Shown: in pieces, positions 1 to 25,925 of the stretch
Layout of the letters: the number at the start of each line of letters is the position of its first letter
How positions within the stretch are numbered: the stretch's first letter is position 1
Source of the DNA: Marinobacter sp.
GTDB taxonomy: Bacteria; Pseudomonadota; Gammaproteobacteria; Pseudomonadales; Oleiphilaceae
DNA: 48,223 nucleotides
Direction: 5' to 3'
Assembly (NCBI GenBank): GCA_014359475.1
Contig: JACIZI010000029.1
Coordinates: forward strand, 1 to 48,223
Notes under the pieces: model-generated
What the model was told of the DNA's origin: nothing
What the model saw: only the letters and a program-made list of their open reading frames with translations
Databases searched by the model: none
Program-made: the position numbers and the translations under genes

Positions 1-82
1 GCCTTTCTAAAACCGTCTCTGGCCATGGATGGCCAGAGCCGAGCCCTACAGGGACGTATTCACGGGCGTGTTTTGGAAAGGC
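1..82 (-). repeat. Structured palindromic 3'-end element, copy 1 (left arm cut by window edge)
   Basis: Inner arms at 1-13 and 70-82 are complementary with one mismatch, and enclose a core of exactly 56 nt (14-69). Within the core, 22-30 and 33-41 form a 9-bp hairpin with a 2-nt loop. Read on the minus strand, in the sense of the thioesterase gene ending at 171, the core starts ACGCCCGTGAA and is identical to that of copy 2. The right flank after 82 resembles the outer arm of copy 5, so the left arm probably continues beyond the window. Confidence 0.85.
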
Positions 83-170
83 CTACCCACCCCGATGCCC
101 CCGCAATCTCTGGGTATGCGTCAAAAATGGGGGCAGCCGACCAGTTTTCAAGACCTTGGGACCGGAAGAA
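83..170. other. Short intergenic stretch
   Basis: Between repeat copy 1 and the end of the thioesterase gene. Apart from sequence resembling the outer right arm of copy 5 (83-105), I see no gene, promoter or simple terminator here. Confidence 0.5.
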
Positions 171-10277: not shown

Positions 10278-10353
10278 TCCCCGATAGCTCAGTTGGTAGA
10301 GCAACGGACTGTTAATCCGTTTGTCGCTGGTTCGAGCCCAGCTCGGGGAGCCA
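10278..10353 (+). tRNA. tRNA-Asn (GTT), copy 1
   Basis: A 76-nt tRNA with encoded CCA. The acceptor stem TCCCCGA pairs with TCGGGGA, the D-arm holds AGCTCAGTTGGTAGAGC, the anticodon GTT is at 10311-10313, and the T-loop reads GGTTCGAGCCC. The discriminator base is G. It is identical over its full length to the second copy at 24583-24658. An own promoter lies upstream and a strong hairpin terminator downstream, so it is monocistronic. Confidence 0.98.
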
Positions 10354-19516: not shown

Positions 19517-20629
19517 ATGCCTGATTACCAGCTTCAACGTGCCGGCCCCGACGATCTGGATGCGCTGGTGCAGCTTGAAAACCGGTGCTTTACAGAAGAC
19601 CGGATCTCCCGCCGCAGTTTCCGTCGTTTTATGGAGATGCCCAGAGACCGGGTGCTCGTCGCTCGCCAGAACGGTTCGCTGGTCGGCTATTGCGTGGTAC
19701 TGATGAATGCCGCGACACGATTGGCGCGGATCTACTCGATTGCCGTGTCGGAGGATGTCCGGGGACAGGGTGTCGGGGAGCGCCTGATTGCCTTTGCGGA
19801 AAAAGAAGCAGCCAATAACGGGCGGATTGTGATGCGCCTGGAGGTGCGGGAAGATAACCCTTCCGCCATCAGGCTTTACCACCGGTTGGGTTACCGAAAA
19901 TTCGGCACAAAGCTGGACTACTACGAAGACCATGGCACCGCTCTGCGTTTTGAAAAACGCATCCTGTTCCTGGAGCCATCGCGGGCGCCGATCCGGGTGC
20001 CCTACTATGCCCAGACCACTGAGTTCACCTGCGGGCCGGCGGCGCTGTTAATGGCCATGGCGGCTCTTGATCCGCAGCAACCGGTGAGTTCCCTGGAAGA
20101 GCTCAGGCTATGGCGCGAGGCCACCACCATTTTCATGCTCGCCGGCCACGGCGGCTGCGGCCCCCACGGCCTGGCCCTGTCCGCCTGGCGACGCGGTTTT
20201 CACGCCAGTGCCTTTATCAGCCAGCAGGGCCCGCTGTTCCGGGACACGGTCCGCAATGAGGACAAGAAGCGGGTACTGGAACTGGTGCATGAAGGGTTTA
20301 TCCACGACATGGCCGATACCGGGATAGACCTGCACCACGAGCCACTGACCCTGGAGGCCATGTCCGACGCCCTGCACCGTGGTCGTGTACCGGTCATCCT
20401 GATCAGCACCTGGCAACTGAACCGCAGCCGCGTGCCCCACTGGGTGACGGTGTGTGCCATCGACGATCAGTTCGTTTACCTGCACGATCCGGAGGTGGAT
20501 GTGGAAGCCGGCGAGGCAGTGGCCGACAAACAGTACCTGCCGATAGACCGACGGGTGTTTGACCGCATGTCCCGGTACGGGCGCAACCAGCCGCTGCAGG
20601 CTGCCGTAATTGTTGGGCCTTTGCGGTGA
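19517..20629 (+). CDS. GNAT acetyltransferase / C39-like cysteine peptidase fusion
   Basis: A 370-aa two-domain protein. Residues 1-150 are a GNAT domain with the acetyl-CoA loop VRGQGVGERL and the C-terminal RLYHRLGY motif typical of RimI-like enzymes. Residues about 160-365 are a papain-like C39 domain: Cys in EFTCGPAALLMAM, His in VPHWVTV and Asp in LHDPE give the catalytic triad. There is no signal peptide, so it is cytoplasmic. With the divergent RLAN ATP-grasp ligase it suggests a system that ligates, acetylates and trims peptides; the target is unknown. It ends 39 nt before the arm of repeat copy 2. Confidence 0.88.
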   Translation: MPDYQLQRAGPDDLDALVQLENRCFTEDRISRRSFRRFMEMPRDRVLVARQNGSLVGYCVVLMNAATRLARIYSIAVSEDVRGQGVGERLIAFAEKEAANNGRIVMRLEVREDNPSAIRLYHRLGYRKFGTKLDYYEDHGTALRFEKRILFLEPSRAPIRVPYYAQTTEFTCGPAALLMAMAALDPQQPVSSLEELRLWREATTIFMLAGHGGCGPHGLALSAWRRGFHASAFISQQGPLFRDTVRNEDKKRVLELVHEGFIHDMADTGIDLHHEPLTLEAMSDALHRGRVPVILISTWQLNRSRVPHWVTVCAIDDQFVYLHDPEVDVEAGEAVADKQYLPIDRRVFDRMSRYGRNQPLQAAVIVGPLR

Positions 20630-20667
20630 TTTTCTGGCTTGGTTTCCCAGCCTGGTAATTGGGGGGT

Positions 20668-20781
20668 GAGCCAGTTGGGGGAGTGCTTTCCAAAACACGC
20701 CCGTGAATACGTCCCTGTAGGGCTCGGCTCTGGCCATCCATGGCCAGAGACGGTTTTGGAAAGCACTCCCCCAACCGGCTC
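20668..20781 (+). repeat. Structured palindromic 3'-end element, copy 2
   Basis: Outer arms 20668-20696 and 20753-20781 are 29 nt each with a single mismatch. They enclose a 56-nt core (20697-20752) starting ACGCCCGTGAA. Core positions 33-41 and 44-52 (20729-20737 with 20740-20748) form a 9-bp hairpin with loop CC; a smaller hairpin (TAC/GTA) sits at core 12-23, framed by GCCC and GGGC. Oriented with the GNAT/C39 gene that ends upstream. Confidence 0.92.
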
Positions 20782-20921
20782 TTGTCGAACTTATGGTGGG
20801 ATCGCCTTTGAGGAATAGCGGTCTTTGGCGAGGAGTTTTACAAGAGGCAACCCGATACCTCTGCGCATTACTGCTTTGACCGTAAGGAGTTAACTCCCTG
20901 ATATATCACCCGGGTTAACAA

Positions 20922-21033
20922 GAGAGGGCGTGGTGGCTGTTTTCAGGACCGTCTGCAGCCATGGATGGCTGCAGCCGAGCCCCCCAGGGATGGGTTCACG
21001 GGCGTGTCCTGAAAACAGCCACCACGCCCTCTC
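20922..21033 (-). repeat. Structured palindromic 3'-end element, copy 3
   Basis: Arms 20922-20949 and 21006-21033 are a perfect 28-bp inverted repeat around a 56-nt core (20950-21005). Both arm sequence and hairpin B differ from copies 1, 2 and 5, yet remain paired: the hairpin stem is CTGCAGCCAT with ATGGCTGCAG. Hairpin A is CCCA/TGGG instead of TAC/GTA. Read on the minus strand, in the sense of uvrB, which ends 43 nt away. Confidence 0.92.
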
Positions 21034-21075
21034 CCGCCCCGGAACCATCAGGCTACAGACATAAGAGCACCAAGC

Positions 21076-23136
21076 TCAGCCAACCCGCATGGCAGCCTCT
21101 TTGAGCTCGGAAATTTCATCCCGCAACCGCGCCGCCTTCTCGAAGTCCAGATCGCCGGCGGCCTTGTACATATCGTCCTCCAGCCCGGAGATCTCCTTGA
21201 GCAGCTGCTCCGGCGACTTGTTACCCGCCCTGACCAGATAACGCTCGGCTTCTTCCGCGGCTTTCTGACCGGGTCGCTCGGCCTTACGGCGACCACGACC
21301 ACTGCCCGGGGCACCTTCCATGATGTCGGAGATTTTCTTGTTCAGACCCGTGGGCGTGATGCCATGCTCCTCGTTGAAGACCGTCTGCTTGGCCCGGCGG
21401 CGTTCGGTTTCGTCGATTGCCCGCTGCATGGAACCGGTGACCCGGTCGCCGTAGAGGATGGCTTTGCCGTGCACGTTCCGGGCGGCGCGGCCAATGGTCT
21501 GGATCAGGGAGCGTTCGGAACGCAGGAAACCTTCCTTGTCGGCATCCAGAATGGTCACCAGGGAGACTTCCGGCATGTCCAGCCCTTCCCGCAGCAGGTT
21601 GATGCCCACCAGTACATCAAACTCACCCCGACGAAGGTCGCGAATGATTTCCACCCGCTCCACGGTGTCGATGTCCGAGTGCAGGTAACGCACACGGATA
21701 TCGTGTTCCATCAGGAAGTCGGTGAGGTCTTCCGCCATGCGCTTGGTAAGGGTGGTCACCAGTACCCGCTCGTTCACTCCGGTGCGCAGGTGGATTTCCG
21801 AAACCAGGTCATCCACCTGTGTGGAGGCCGGGCGGACTTCGATTTCCGGGTCCAGCAGACCGGTGGGGCGCACCACCTGTTCCACTACCTGACCGGAGTG
21901 TTCCGCTTCGTAGTTACCGGGCGTGGCGGAGACGAAGATCATCTGCGGGGCGATGCGCTCCCACTCGTCGAACCGCATGGGCCGGTTATCCAGGGCGGAC
22001 GGCAGGCGGAAGCCGTATTCCACCAGGGTCTCTTTGCGGGAGCGGTCGCCCTTGTACATGGCGCCGATCTGGGGAATGGTGACGTGGGACTCGTCCACCA
22101 CCAGCAGCGCATTGGGCGGGATGTAGTCAAACAGTGTGGGTGGTGGTTCGCCGGGGGCGCGACCGGAGAGGTATCGGGAGTAGTTCTCGATACCGTTGCA
22201 GTAGCCCAGCTCCAGCATCATTTCGATATCATACCGGGTGCGTTCCTCCAGACGCTGAGCTTCTACCAGCCGGTTGTTGTCTCGCAACTGTTTGAGCCGC
22301 TCGTCCAGTTCTTGCTTGATGCGGTCCACCGCGTTGAGCACGGTACTCCGCGGGGTGACGTAGTGGGTTTTCGGGTAGATGGTCACCCGGGGCACACGGC
22401 GCAGCACTTCTCCGGTGAGCGGGTCAAAGTAGCTAAGGTTCTCCACCTCGTCATCAAACAGTTCGATGCGGATGGCTTCTTTCTCGGATTCCGCCGGAAA
22501 TACATCGATGACATCGCCCCGCACCCGGTAGTTGGCGCGGTGGAATTCCACGTCGTTACGGGTGTACTGGAGCTCCGCCAGGCGACGCAGCAGGTCCCGC
22601 TGGCCAATCCCGTCTCCCCGGTCCAGGTGCAGCATCATCTTCAGGTAGGACTGGGGATCACCCAGACCGTAGATGGCAGAAACCGTCGCTACAATAATCG
22701 CATCCGGTCGCTCGAGTAGCGCTTTGGTGGCTGACAGGCGCATCTGTTCAATGTGTTCGTTGACCGAGGCATCCTTCTCGATAAAGGTGTCCGACGATGG
22801 TACATAGGCCTCCGGCTGGTAGTAATCGTAGTAGGACACGAAATACTCCACCGCATTGTCCGGAAAGAATTCCCGGAACTCGCCGTATAACTGGGCGGCG
22901 AGGGTCTTGTTGTGGGCCAGGACGATGGTGGGCCGCTGTATTTCCTGCACCACATTGGCGATGGTGAACGTCTTGCCGGAGCCGGTTACGCCCAGCAGGG
23001 TCTGGTGTGCAAGACCGGAGTGGATGCCGTCCACCAGGCCAGCGATCGCCTTGGGCTGGTCGCCGGCAGGCTGGTAGGGGGAGTCGACCTTGAAGGCACC
23101 GTCTTTCATCAGTGCGCCGGTTTCGGATGTCGCCAT
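21076..23136 (-). CDS. uvrB: Excinuclease ABC subunit B
   Basis: A 686-aa DNA damage recognition helicase of nucleotide excision repair, which receives DNA from UvrA2 and recruits UvrC. Walker A GVTGSGKT is at 49-56; the beta-hairpin segment [14 protein letters not shown] clamps one strand; DESH is motif II; and [15 protein letters not shown] carries motif VI. A C-terminal UVR domain (about 645-680) binds UvrC. The best Shine-Dalgarno (GGAGG) is about 14 nt from the ATG, which is long; Met10 is an alternative start. I see no full LexA box upstream. Confidence 0.97.
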
Positions 23137-23327
23137 GGCGGGGAGCTTACCTCCGGGTTATCAAAACAGAGCTGACGGTTGCCGAACAGTTGCAAGGTTC
23201 AGCAAAACTTATCGTTGCGAGAGCTTCATGGTACCATCTGTACGATCGATAACCGCCCCTGATGCGCGGAATCATCCCGACGCAGGCGGCTCGAACCTAT
23301 ACAGACGCAGCTTTAAGGAGCGCAAGT

Positions 23328-24512
23328 TTGGACCTTCAACTTTCCAGCCGAGTACAGGCTATCAAGCCCTCTCCCACACTCGCAGTCACCAACAAGGCTG
23401 CGGAACTCCGCGCAGCCGGCCAGGATATCATTGGCCTGGGGGCCGGCGAGCCGGACTTTGACACGCCCGATCACATCAAACAGGCGGCCATCGAAGCCAT
23501 CAACAACGGCCAGACCAAGTATACCGCGGTTGATGGTACGCCGGCCCTCAAGAAGGCGATCATTGCCAAGTTCAAACGGGACAACGGACTGGAATACGAA
23601 AACAATCAGATACTGGTAAGTAGTGGTGGCAAGCAGAGCTTTTTCAACCTTGCCCTGGCCACCCTGAACCCCGGCGACGAAGCCATCATTCCGGCCCCTT
23701 ACTGGGTATCCTACCCGGATATGGTCAAAGTGGCCGAAGGTACGCCGGTGATTCTTGAAACCACCGCGGAAACCCGCTTCAAGATCACCCCCGGGCAACT
23801 GGAAAAAGCCATCACCGGGCGCACCCGGCTGTTTGTCATCAACAGCCCCTCCAACCCCAGTGGCATGGCCTATTCCATGGAAGAGCTGCAGGCGCTGGGT
23901 GAAGTGCTGAAGAAGTACCCGCAGGTGATGATTGCCACCGACGACATGTACGAGCCGATCCTCTGGACCGGCAAGCCATTCTGCAACATCGTCAATGCCA
24001 CACCCGAGCTGTACGACCGCACCTTCGTTCTTAACGGCGTGTCCAAGGCTTACTCCATGACCGGCTGGCGCATCGGCTACGCCGCCGGCCCGGCACAGAT
24101 CATCGGTGCCATGAAGAAGATCCAGTCCCAGAGCACCTCCAACCCCTGCTCCATCTCCCAGGCCGCCGCTCAGGCCGCACTGGACGGTGACCAGGCCTGT
24201 GTGGGTGAAATGGTCAAGGCCTTCAAAGAGCGCCACGACTGGCTGGTGGAGGCCCTGAACAAACTGCCGGGGGTTGAGTGTCTGAGCGGCGATGGCACCT
24301 TCTATGTGTTCCCGAGCTTCCAGGGCGCCATCGATGTGGATGCGTCCGTGGGCAACGATGTGGAGTTTGCCGAAAACCTTCTGACTGACGCCGGCGTGGC
24401 CCTGGTCCCGGGTTCTGCTTTCGGCTGTCCGGGGCACATGCGTTTGAGCTTTGCCACCAGCATGGAGAACCTGCAGAAAGCGGTTGAGCGTCTGCAGAAA
24501 GCCCTGGGCTAA
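23328..24512 (+). CDS. aspC: Class I pyridoxal-phosphate aminotransferase (aspartate aminotransferase type Ib)
   Basis: A 394-aa enzyme that transfers the amino group between aspartate and 2-oxoglutarate, possibly also with prephenate or aromatic substrates. The TTG start at 23328 is supported by AAGGAG 7 nt upstream; the longer ATG reading at 23262 adds residues unlike the family. GLGAGEPDFDTP, NSPSNPSG (cofactor contact) and the PLP lysine in NGVSKAYSMTGWRIGY are clear. The sequence is of the type Ib (Rhizobium/Thermus-like) group rather than the E. coli AspC group. It precedes a tRNA-Asn gene by 70 nt, but that gene has its own promoter. Confidence 0.93.
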   Translation: MDLQLSSRVQAIKPSPTLAVTNKAAELRAAGQDIIGLGAGEPDFDTPDHIKQAAIEAINNGQTKYTAVDGTPALKKAIIAKFKRDNGLEYENNQILVSSGGKQSFFNLALATLNPGDEAIIPAPYWVSYPDMVKVAEGTPVILETTAETRFKITPGQLEKAITGRTRLFVINSPSNPSGMAYSMEELQALGEVLKKYPQVMIATDDMYEPILWTGKPFCNIVNATPELYDRTFVLNGVSKAYSMTGWRIGYAAGPAQIIGAMKKIQSQSTSNPCSISQAAAQAALDGDQACVGEMVKAFKERHDWLVEALNKLPGVECLSGDGTFYVFPSFQGAIDVDASVGNDVEFAENLLTDAGVALVPGSAFGCPGHMRLSFATSMENLQKAVERLQKALG

Positions 24513-24529
24513 AAAGTTCTGGTCAGGGG

Positions 24530-24558
24530 TTGACGGGGCCGTATCGCCAACTTAATAT
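24530..24558 (+). promoter_or_regulatory. Promoter of tRNA-Asn (copy 2)
   Basis: TTGACG (24530-24535), a 17-nt spacer and TAATAT (24553-24558), followed by a GC-rich discriminator (ACGCGCC). Same -35, same spacing and near-identical -10 as the first tRNA-Asn promoter. It starts 17 nt after the aminotransferase stop. Confidence 0.8.
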
Positions 24559-24582
24559 ACGCGCCTCGTCACAGGACGACGT

Positions 24583-24658
24583 TCCCCGATAGCTCAGTTG
24601 GTAGAGCAACGGACTGTTAATCCGTTTGTCGCTGGTTCGAGCCCAGCTCGGGGAGCCA
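24583..24658 (+). tRNA. tRNA-Asn (GTT), copy 2
   Basis: A 76-nt tRNA identical to the one at 10278-10353, with anticodon GTT at 24616-24618 and an encoded CCA. It has its own promoter (24530) and terminator (24667). Exact identity over the gene, with only the functional parts of the flanks kept, suggests gene conversion or strong selection. Confidence 0.98.
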
Positions 24659-24666
24659 CTATTCCG

Positions 24667-24703
24667 AAAAGCCGCCTTGGTCTCTGACTCTGGCGGCTTT
24701 TTT
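24667..24703 (+). terminator. Terminator after tRNA-Asn copy 2
   Basis: AAAAGCCGCC (24667-24676) pairs with GGCGGCTTTT (24692-24701), continuing into a run of six T. The stem is shared with the first tRNA-Asn terminator, while the loop differs. Confidence 0.92.
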
Positions 24704-24728
24704 GTGCCTTCCTTTTGGTTAGTGCCAT

Positions 24729-24770
24729 GGTTTGGTTTGCGGTTTGGTTTGCGGTTTGGTTTGCGGTTTA
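24729..24770 (+). repeat. 12-bp G/T-rich tandem repeat
   Basis: GGTTTGGTTTGC occurs three times in direct succession (24729-24740, 24741-24752, 24753-24764), with a partial fourth unit GGTTTA. It starts 25 nt after the tRNA-Asn terminator. Likely a slippage-prone simple repeat. Confidence 0.9.
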
Positions 24771-24795
24771 GCCTGCGTGTTTCGGGGGCGGGAGT

Positions 24796-24899
24796 CAGTT
24801 CGATCTCCCTTTTCAGGACACGCCCGCAAGTACGTCCATGTAGGGCTCGTATCGGGCCATCCATGGCCCTCCACGGTCCTGAAAAGGGAGCTCAAACTG
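24796..24899 (+). repeat. Structured palindromic 3'-end element, copy 4
   Basis: Arms 24796-24819 and 24876-24899 pair over 24 nt with two mismatches; the inner 15 bp are perfect. The core (24820-24875) is again 56 nt. It is the most divergent complete copy: hairpin B is GGGCCAT/ATGGCCC (7 bp) and hairpin A is TACGT/ATGTA. It is oriented with the tRNA-Asn unit upstream, although that unit already has a terminator. Confidence 0.9.
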
Positions 24900-25046
24900 C
24901 CTCTTATCAACAGCTGCAGTTATCGCTTATTCAGTGCATTGGCAGGCTTGGGTTCGAACGCAGCTTATTGGTTAACGAAGGTACAAACGCCTTCAGATCC
25001 CCCAAACATTGCGGTACCCAAAACAGGCGATATCCGGAAACTTGCA

Positions 25047-25162
25047 GGGCATCGGGTGGGGAAGCCTTTCCAAAACCGTCTCTGGCCATGGATGGCCAGA
25101 GCCGAGCCCCCCATGGATGGGTTCACGGGCGTGTTTTGGAAAGGCTTACCCACCCGGTGCCC
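25047..25162 (-). repeat. Structured palindromic 3'-end element, copy 5
   Basis: Arms 25047-25076 and 25133-25162 pair over 30 nt with two mismatches. The 56-nt core (25077-25132) has hairpin B like copies 1 and 2, but hairpin A is a perfect CCCAT/ATGGG. Read on the minus strand, in the sense of pyrF, which ends 35 nt away. Confidence 0.92.
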
Positions 25163-25196
25163 CCACTCCCCGACAATCAGGCTAGGGAGGAAACCC

Positions 25197-25925
25197 TCAA
25201 ACTACAGAAACAATCTCGGAGTGGATCAGCGAGAGCGCGGTCAGGGGCTCCTCTGCACGGGTTATCGGACGGCCGATGACGAGGTAGTCGCTGCCGGCGC
25301 GGAGGGCTTCCGAGGGGGTCATGATGCGCTGCTGGTCGCCGCGATCGGAATCCAGCGGGCGGATGCCCGGGGTTACAAGCCGGAAGTCAGCACCCTGCTC
25401 GGCTTTCAGACGCGGAGATTCCTGGGCGGAGCAGACGACACCGTCCAGGCCGCAGTTGCGGGTCAATGTGGCCAGCCGGGATACCTGGGCTTCCGGGGCA
25501 TCGTTGATGCCGATGCCTCTGAGGTCGTCGCCGGTCATGCTGGTCAGAACGGTGACCGCAATAAGCAGTGGCCGGTTCTGGCCATAGGGCTCCAGGCGTT
25601 CACGGCAGGCGGTCATCATTTTTTCTCCGCCGGAGGCGTGGACGTTGACCATCCACACCCCCAGATCCGCAGCCGCCGCAACCGCCGCCGAGGTGGTGTT
25701 GGGGATGTCATGGAATTTCAGGTCCAGGAATATCTCGAAACCACGTTGCTGAAGCTCCCCCACCAACTGAGGACCAAAGCGGGTGAACAGTTCCTTGCCG
25801 ACTTTCAGGCGGCATTTGGCCGGGTCCAGCTGGTCTGCCAGGGACAGGGCCGGTTCCCGATCCGGGAAGTCGAGGGCAACGATAATTCGGGGGTCTGGGG
25901 TAGTCAATGGAGGGGTTCCGTTCAT
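25197..25925 (-). CDS. pyrF: Orotidine 5'-phosphate decarboxylase
   Basis: A 242-aa TIM-barrel enzyme giving UMP from OMP, the last step of de novo pyrimidine synthesis. The first strand is IIVALDF; the catalytic Asp-Lys-Asp network is in [12 protein letters not shown] (Lys70); and [12 protein letters not shown] near the C-terminus binds the phosphate. I start at the ATG at 25925, 11 nt after the lapB stop; a longer reading would overlap lapB. The lapA-lapB-pyrF order is the same as in E. coli. Repeat copy 5 follows its stop. Confidence 0.96.

What the first reader, a model, noticed from the sequence alone, without database searches (positions are those of the whole stretch)
20668..25162. Family of intergenic elements with a fixed 56-nt core and three helices supported by compensatory changes
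Seen directly: five complete copies (1-82, 20668-20781, 20922-21033, 24796-24899, 25047-25162) have cores of exactly 56 nt between complementary arms. In core numbering, sense of the adjacent gene, hairpin B pairs 33-41 with 44-52. Pair 35-50 is T-A in copies 1, 2 and 5, C-G in copy 3 and G-C in copy 4. Pairs 34-51 and 36-49 also change on both sides in copy 3. Hairpin A (12-23) switches between TAC/GTA and CCC/GGG. GCCC (3-6) and GGGC (24-27) are invariant and can close hairpin A with a GTGAA bulge. The outer stem changes between CCAAAAC/GTTTTGG and TCAGGAC/GTCCTGA. Invariant unpaired stretches and covarying helices are the pattern of a structured RNA, or of a structure-recognised DNA element. 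It may already be catalogued as a REP-type repeat; I cannot check.
Basis: partly seen in the sequence, partly recalled or inferred. Interest (0 to 1): 0.85.

Follow-up and report, generated by a model that had tools for sequence, protein, structure and literature searches.

The report
Flipping CsrA-type hairpin repeat family
The window carries copies of a bacterial repeat whose RNA would fold into two loops that look like docking sites for the global regulator CsrA; it is a high-copy relative of a little-studied known RNA motif, the key bases of its loops hardly change while its long stem is rewritten quickly, and its centre can flip over in place.

Summary
Five copies have a 56-nt core and complementary arms (copy 1 is cut by the contig end). 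About 70 copies, fragments included, lie in this genome; all 36 same-genus genomes searched have some.

Found here:
- Close neighbours face outward in 37 of 38 cases.
- Isolated stem mismatches favour the AYGGAY strand (G-U 130 vs A-C 30; G-A 60 vs C-U 10); unfiltered the lean is weaker (184 vs 110; 112 vs 18).
- Loops are CANGGANG, the published CsrA/RsmE consensus. In 36 orthologous pairs loop N positions changed in 33 of 144, the fixed positions in 0 of 431.
- Arms diverge about twice as fast as flanks, mostly with compensation. The core is inverted in place in 3 of 20 orthologues of one species pair, 0 of 16 of the other. Arm homogenisation plus spacer inversion is the published outcome of template switching, so outer-stem covariation alone does not prove an RNA.

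Best reading: a dispersed dual-site CsrA-binding RNA element whose stem is maintained by template switching. Binding, transcription and transposition were not shown. New variant of a known kind.

The parts
1..99 (+). Copy 1, 5' arm truncated by the contig start; loops CATGGATG 24-31 and CAGGGACG 49-56
   Evidence: R1 match 93.0 bits, cut off at 5'; read
20667..20784 (-). Copy 2 (left member of an outward-facing pair); CANGGANG loops at 20735-20742 and 20710-20717 on the - strand
   Evidence: R1 match 126.6 bits; arms I5; not listed for RF01731
20918..21035 (+). Copy 3 (right member of the pair with copy 2); loops 20960-20967 and 20985-20992
   Evidence: R1 match 127.8 bits; RF01731 39.2 bits, below its 43-bit threshold; arms I7
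24790..24907 (-). Copy 4 (left member of the second pair), with tandem G-A mismatches in hairpin 1; loops 24858-24865 and 24833-24840 on the - strand
   Evidence: R1 match 106.5 bits; RF01731 35.7 bits; arms I8
25045..25162 (+). Copy 5 (right member of the second pair); loops 25087-25094 and 25112-25119
   Evidence: R1 match 128.6 bits; RF01731 34.0 bits; arms I6
25026..25044 (+). Conserved 5' flank GGCGATATCC... of copy 5; a 14-base form of this motif lies in register in 26 of 67 own-genome upstream regions
   Evidence: motif search against three shuffled sets, listing
21036..21056 (+). 3' flank of copy 3 with CATCAGGCTA; own-genome 3' flank is about CCCCCAAAC, many copies followed by CAGGCTA
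   Evidence: flank profile and listing of 40 flanks; sequence

Best explanation
A dispersed repeat whose unit RNA presents two CANGGANG hexaloops on a three-way junction, 25 nt apart from GGA to GGA in the main type. I infer that one CsrA/RsmA dimer binds both loops when a copy is transcribed in the AYGGAY direction, so that copies scattered in intergenic and 3' regions put CsrA-binding sites on many transcripts, most simply as a distributed decoy pool. The outer stem of about 30 bp is constrained mainly to pair; its inner ten bases also have a preferred sequence within the genome. DNA template switching between the arms keeps them complementary and sometimes flips the core. Shown: copies, loops, strand lean, loop invariance with free N positions, fast compensated arm change, core inversion, outward pairing. 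Inferred: transcription, CsrA binding, titration, template switching as the cause. Not searched for: an enzyme that spreads it.
For: Loops: of 174 elements found by the model alone, 158 have at least two CANGGANG (own 65 of 73, genus 65 of 67, class 28 of 34); 47 more came from a pattern scan that demanded these loops and prove nothing on this point. In all 221, 220 have at least one and the other strand has 3 matches in total. The consensus (A/U)CANGGANG(U/A) is quoted in PMC6692469 (passage); SELEX RUACARGGAUGU and CsrA bridging of sites 10-63 nt apart are in PMC7652899 (passages).

Selection: in 36 orthologous pairs GGA 0/216, A 0/72, closing C/G 0/143, N 33/144, other core 48/1308 changed.

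Strand: isolated stem mismatches G-U 130 vs A-C 30, G-A 60 vs C-U 10, GG+AA 43 vs CC+TT 3 (the p values there, 5e-16 and 8e-10, treat mismatches as independent). Unfiltered: G-U 184 vs A-C 110, G-A 112 vs C-U 18, GG+AA 90 vs CC+TT 10.

Template switching: arms 18.6% (324/1740, ungapped, 30 pairs) or 16.3% (372/2283, gapped, 36 pairs) vs flanks 8.8% (1156/13201); 120 Watson-Crick to Watson-Crick double changes vs 39 broken pairs; 3 core inversions in 36 orthologues. The start of the abstract of PMC8604942 names arm homogenisation and spacer inversion as outcomes of template switching (listing).

csrA: in 58 of 59 good-quality class genomes with elements vs 222 of 255 without (Fisher p 0.009; counted by hand, test).

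PMC4333381 predicted that TwoAYGGAY binds CsrA (passage).
Against: No transcript was shown. A promoter/terminator scan of 20600-25250 found nothing in either spacer and no more sites than shuffles (2 vs 1.4; 6 vs 4.9); no TTTT follows the stem in 68 of 68 own elements. In RNAfold minimum-energy structures both GGA are unpaired in only 26 of 55 own copies. Orientation relative to the neighbouring genes is only weakly favoured: sense 34 of 53 in codirectional gaps, p 0.053. Unfiltered own-genome mismatches lean little, G-U 60 vs A-C 47. 5 of 71 element-bearing class genomes lack a csrA hit, one of them 98% complete (G252). Genomes with 3 and with 60 or more copies are in one genus, so a large pool is not needed. 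Phylogeny and strand-biased mutation were not modelled.
Confidence: 0.6

Rival explanations
1. A non-autonomous mobile DNA element of the REPIN/BIME type: the inverted pair of hairpins is the moving unit, recognised as single-stranded DNA by a transposase, and CsrA is irrelevant.
For: Neighbours within 400 nt face outward in 37 of 38 cases. Copy number in the genus from 3 to at least 63. In MAG Ast373_bin18 five pairs look alike by eye over the whole unit including the spacer (outputs cut). At the uvrB site 27 of 31 loci read have no R1 match. G-T wobble would also give a folded DNA strand the mismatch lean.
Against: No clean new insertion was found: the five absences aligned between sister species look like deletions with remnants, one of them (G007 321582) less clearly; other absent sites were not aligned. 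No transposase search was made. GTAG/CGTC REPs are 20-40 bp palindromes with an unpaired tag (PMC3733652 abstract and passages), unlike this. It does not explain why exactly the CsrA consensus positions are invariant and the N positions free.
Confidence: 0.22
2. A 3' UTR hairpin that ends or protects transcripts; the long stem is the functional part and the loops are incidental.
For: Single copies are more often in convergent than in divergent gaps (22 vs 9; gaps without element in the same loci 17 vs 15).
Against: Both orientations are common, no U-tract follows, and loop bases are the most conserved part.
Confidence: 0.1
3. Palindromes kept only by template switching, without any selected function.
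For: Fast compensated arms and core inversion; the title and abstract start of PMC8794818 say that template switching can create and maintain RNA hairpins (listing).
Against: Strand-asymmetric mismatches and 0 of 431 changes at fixed loop positions need selection or an equally specific bias.
Confidence: 0.05

Closest known systems
TwoAYGGAY RNA, Rfam RF01731 (screen of PMC2864571; CsrA binding predicted in PMC4333381)
   Same: Two hairpins with GGA loops, tandem G-A in a stem, outer stem poorly conserved in sequence, same strand; best own-genome copy 45.3 bits against a threshold of 43.
   Different: Window copies score 34-39 bits or are not listed, and only 9 own-genome places reach E<=0.001. 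The second loop base is G as often as T (200 vs 195 of 427 loops), not only Y. Tens to about a hundred copies per genome, outward pairs, about 30-bp arms. The papers were seen only as passages, which do not mention copy number or pairs.
CsrB/RsmZ-type CsrA-sequestering sRNAs
   Same: Hairpin loops with the CsrA consensus.
   Different: Those are single genes with many sites (recalled); here two sites per unit in many units. RF00166 (RsmZ) has 0 of 34 genomes over its cut-off, one below it; its control set gave no positive either. CsrB, CsrC, RsmX and RsmY were not searched.
REPINs / GTAG- and CGTC-tagged REPs (PMC3116915 abstract start in a listing, PMC3733652 passages)
   Same: Many intergenic copies, two inverted palindromes per unit, single copies beside pairs.
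   Different: About 118-nt two-hairpin units instead of 20-40 bp palindromes; arms nearly unique to each copy; no tag. A GTAG-type inverted pair sits inside the spacer of one pair (L144).
Quasipalindromes under template switching (PMC7202029, PMC8604942: abstract starts in a listing)
   Same: Arms made alike, spacer inversion, clustered changes.
   Different: Here the spacer is a conserved two-loop core, and the process affects a whole repeat family.

Membership tests
TwoAYGGAY (RF01731) | Score at or above the curated gathering threshold (43 bits) | tested here: not met
   Window copies 39.2, 35.7, 34.0 bits, copy 2 not listed, copy 1 outside the stretch searched and not over threshold; in the own genome 1 of 9 listed places is over it, 45.3 bits
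TwoAYGGAY (RF01731) | Two hairpins each with an AYGGAY loop | tested here: inconclusive
   At least two CANGGANG in 158 of 174 model-found elements, but position 2 is G in 200 of 427 loops of the whole set, so the motif is ANGGAN
TwoAYGGAY (RF01731) | Tandem G-A in one stem (stated in PMC4333381, passage) | tested here: met
   10 of 27 own copies have G37-A56 and 10 of 27 A38-G55 in hairpin 1
CsrA/RsmA binding RNA | GGA in a hairpin loop within (A/U)CANGGANG(U/A) | tested here: met
   Core CANGGANG. The outer A/U-U/A pair is present only in the TAC/GTA form of hairpin 2
CsrA/RsmA binding RNA | Binds CsrA | not testable with these tools
   needs protein and RNA
CsrB/RsmZ-type sRNA gene | Own promoter and intrinsic terminator | tested here: inconclusive
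   No site in the spacers of the window (consensus scan), no TTTT behind 68 of 68 own elements; a conserved 5' flank GGCGATATC is unexplained, and other promoter types are not covered
REP / REPIN | 20-40 bp palindrome with an unpaired GTAG or CGTC end | tested here: not met
   118-nt three-helix unit; definition from PMC3733652 (abstract and passages)
REP / REPIN | Dedicated RAYT transposase flanked by the repeats | not tested
   no transposase search was made
MITE | Target-site duplication at insertion | tested here: inconclusive
   No clean empty site among the five absences aligned

The most novel reading that the evidence does not exclude
A genome-wide set of DNA-invertible CsrA-binding RNA elements: each copy's core can flip within its arms through template switching, which moves the CsrA-binding strand from one transcript to the opposite one. 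A bacterium would thus carry dozens of slow, heritable switches that decide which transcripts hold CsrA, with the palindromic arms kept as the flipping device.
Probability: 0.2. Interest if true: 0.88.

Novelty: new variant of a known kind. Interest (0 to 1): 0.7.

Why it matters
TwoAYGGAY is an RNA motif without a proven role, with a CsrA prediction left open. Here a relative of it becomes a repeat family with enough paralogous and orthologous copies to show that exactly the CsrA contact bases do not change and to name the favoured strand. The same element also lets two forces be told apart that covariation tests usually mix: selection on a folded strand and template switching in DNA.

Tried and rejected
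Tried and rejected or dropped: (1) The first search pattern had the spacing wrong by one base and found nothing; corrected. (2) Promoter in the spacer: a motif GGCGATATC at about -19 is conserved, but no partner box was seen and a consensus scan found no site in the spacers; left open. (3) 'Upstream gene on the same strand' (56 of 84, p 0.003) was rejected as evidence of sense orientation, because convergent and divergent gaps force it; the codirectional gaps alone give 34 to 19, p 0.053. (4) Recent transposition between sister species: sites that looked empty by gap size turned out, where aligned (five), to hold remnants. (5) Arm exchange between copies: arms of 57 own copies are only slightly more alike than shuffled columns (mean nearest neighbour 14.60 of 20 vs 14.19, sd 0.14; best 17 vs shuffled best 19). 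(6) Pair members are not more alike than other copies (10 pairs, core identity 0.746 vs 0.779). (7) miRNA and isrG matches are far below their thresholds and were ignored.

Rows dropped: overlapping matches on the weaker strand; own copies shorter than 112 or longer than 121 nt; for the arm tables, inverted and unequal-length orthologues (14 of 20 used, 16 of 16); the site G007 247320 / G016 146186, which holds different subfamilies in opposite orientation, was left out of the 20. Mismatches not flanked by Watson-Crick pairs were dropped; one search gives the counts without that filter.

Limits: only 9, 63 or 150 candidates were scored per genome, so copy numbers are lower bounds and some genomes counted as without element may have it. 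The gene caller is home-made, trained on 21 window genes. The own genome may include foreign contigs (contamination 1.47%; C61 has a second uvrB end). The genus is inferred to be Marinobacter from named hits, not shown. Flanks include coding sequence. Alignments A3-A7 are fitted to model R1. Outputs were cut, partly by a script fault of mine that printed whole loci.

Full report
WHAT IS THERE. The window (a whole contig, G000:C22) has five copies of an element with a 56-nt core between complementary arms. Copy 1 is cut by the contig start. Copies 2/3 and 4/5 form two inverted pairs, each between genes that converge (a tRNA gene lies before copy 4). In that set 93.5% of pair cells are standard, against 69.3% in shuffles (0 of 500 as high) and 34-49% when partners are slid.

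KNOWN FAMILY. At the curated thresholds Rfam gives only two tRNAs in the window. Below them, copies 3, 4 and 5 match RF01731 TwoAYGGAY at 39.2, 35.7 and 34.0 bits (threshold 43). In the own genome nine places match at E<=0.001, one over threshold. So this is a divergent relative, read on the AYGGAY strand. PMC4333381 (passage) predicts that TwoAYGGAY binds CsrA. PMC2864571 (table passage) rates it probably an RNA and probably not cis-regulatory; Rfam's type for it is Cis-reg.

COPY NUMBER AND HOSTS. A model built from A2 (R1) lists 107 matches at E<=0.001 in the own genome, with many copies listed on both strands and 150 of 1878 candidates scored. My own list has 73 elements, fragments and variants included. 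All 37 genomes of the genus, own included, have matches, from 3 to at least 63, and 4 of 21 other genomes of the order do. In an even draw of 369 class genomes 71 match. A strict pattern finds 56 stretches, with Marinobacter, Marinospirillum, Rheinheimera, Oleiphilaceae and Halieaceae among the record names.

ORGANISATION. Neighbouring copies less than 400 nt apart face outward in 14 of 14 own, 13 of 13 genus and 10 of 11 other cases. In the MAG Ast373_bin18 five pairs look alike by eye over the whole unit, spacer included, so the pair seems to be a repeated unit there. Own copies share a 5' flank about GGCGATATC (26 of 67 in register for a 14-base motif) and a 3' flank about CCCCCAAAC, often with CAGGCTA. 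Variants of about 200 nt carry an insert in the second hairpin, and other subfamilies keep two GGA loops.

WHICH STRAND. In a palindrome under strand-symmetric mutation G-U and A-C mismatches should be equal, as should G-A and C-U. Isolated mismatches in the outer stems of 221 elements are G-U 130, A-C 30, G-A 60, C-U 10, GG+AA 43, CC+TT 3; each of four groups leans the same way, the class group weakly. Without the filter the counts are 184, 110, 112, 18, 90 and 10, and the own-genome G-U to A-C ratio is only 60 to 47. The AYGGAY strand is the favoured one. This fits RNA, but a folded DNA strand would lean the same way.

LOOPS. At least two CANGGANG are present in 158 of 174 model-found elements; the other strand has 3 matches in all 221 elements. 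The published consensus is (A/U)CANGGANG(U/A) (PMC6692469, passage); SELEX gave RUACARGGAUGU, and CsrA bridges sites 10 to 63 nt apart (PMC7652899, passages). The TAC/GTA form of hairpin 2 contains ACANGGACGU. In 36 orthologous pairs the loop N positions changed in 33 of 144, and C, A, GGA and G in 0 of 431. Loops were located by their pattern in one species of each pair, and elements by a model that scores them, so only loss in the other species could be seen; it was not seen.

ARMS AND INVERSION. G007/G016 and G009/G022 are pairs of sister species with flanks about 92% and 90% identical. Orthologous elements were found by both flanks. Arms differ at 20.4% and 17.0%, cores at 4.7% and 5.3%, flanks at 7.9% and 9.8%. 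With gapped alignment of all 36 pairs the arms differ at 16.3%. Of the changed arm pairs 62 and 58 are Watson-Crick before and after with both sides changed, against 22 and 17 broken; the rest keep a wobble pair. One element has 32 of 58 arm bases changed, 0 of 53 core bases changed and 94% identical flanks. In 3 of 20 G007/G016 orthologues the core is inverted while flanks and arms stay; in 0 of 16 of the other pair. The G010 and G003 copies at the uvrB site also differ by five double changes and one C-G to T-G. Homogenised arms and inverted spacers are the outcomes of template switching at inverted repeats (PMC8604942, abstract start). The outer-stem covariation therefore cannot be taken as proof of RNA selection; the loops, and with less force the strand lean, can.

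MOBILITY. At the uvrB site 4 of 31 loci read have an R1 match, and several relatives have nearly abutting stop codons there. But each of the 15 G016 elements in 400 kb has an element at the orthologous G007 site, and the five absences aligned in the two species pairs look like deletions with remnants. The family has spread and decays; no recent insertion was caught. No transposase was searched for.

CSRA. The own genome has one csrA match. Among good-quality class genomes 58 of 59 with elements and 222 of 255 without have csrA (p 0.009; hand count); phylogeny was not controlled. Five of 71 element-bearing genomes lack a csrA hit, four of them under 90% complete. RsmZ (RF00166) is not over its cut-off in any of 34 genomes, but the control set gives no positive either.

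EXPRESSION. No promoter-like or terminator-like site lies in the two spacers of the window, and no TTTT follows 68 of 68 own elements. In minimum-energy folds the AYGGAY strand is the more stable one in 44 of 57 own copies, and both GGA are open in 26 of 55.

CONCLUSION. Best supported: a dispersed dual-site CsrA-type RNA element, related to TwoAYGGAY, with a template-switching stem. Transcription and binding remain to be tested. Literature: the listings (20 of 101 papers; 5 of 7; 12 of 171; 10 of 23; 11 of 11; 3 of 3) show no paper that describes this family as a repeat by title or abstract start; papers not listed were not seen.

Noticed in passing
L100:1682-1881, L123:2020-2215, L126:2077-2276, L114:976-1172, L127:2005-2200 (own genome): Variants of about 200 nt with a shared insert of roughly 80 nt in the second hairpin; the second CANGGANG loop is lost.
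   Followed up: partly
L144 (G010), also L140, L142, L145, L149: A GTAGGTCGGATTAG..CGAAGCGTAATCCGAC repeat, REPIN-like, lies in the same intergenic site; in L144 it sits inside the spacer between two elements of this family.
   Followed up: no
G000:C61 (L119): A second uvrB 3' end, about 80% identical to the window's, with its own element: C61 may come from another strain or species.
   Followed up: no
window 24717-24776: A tandem repeat of period 12 (GGTTTGGTTTGC) just before copy 4 (D3).
   Followed up: no
window 10278-10350 and 24583-24655: Two tRNA genes with identical Rfam score; copy 4 begins 134 nt behind the second.
   Followed up: no
G007 C1:711691-712016 against G016: In G016 a deletion between the two inverted elements left a hybrid hairpin joining the ends of both copies.
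   Followed up: partly
G007 C1:947320 region against G016 C1:2426185: The same intergenic site holds elements of different subfamilies in opposite orientation in the two species.
   Followed up: partly
L101 start (G000:C44:1-66): A long run of G at the contig end directly beside an element, likely an assembly artefact; several contigs end inside elements.
   Followed up: no
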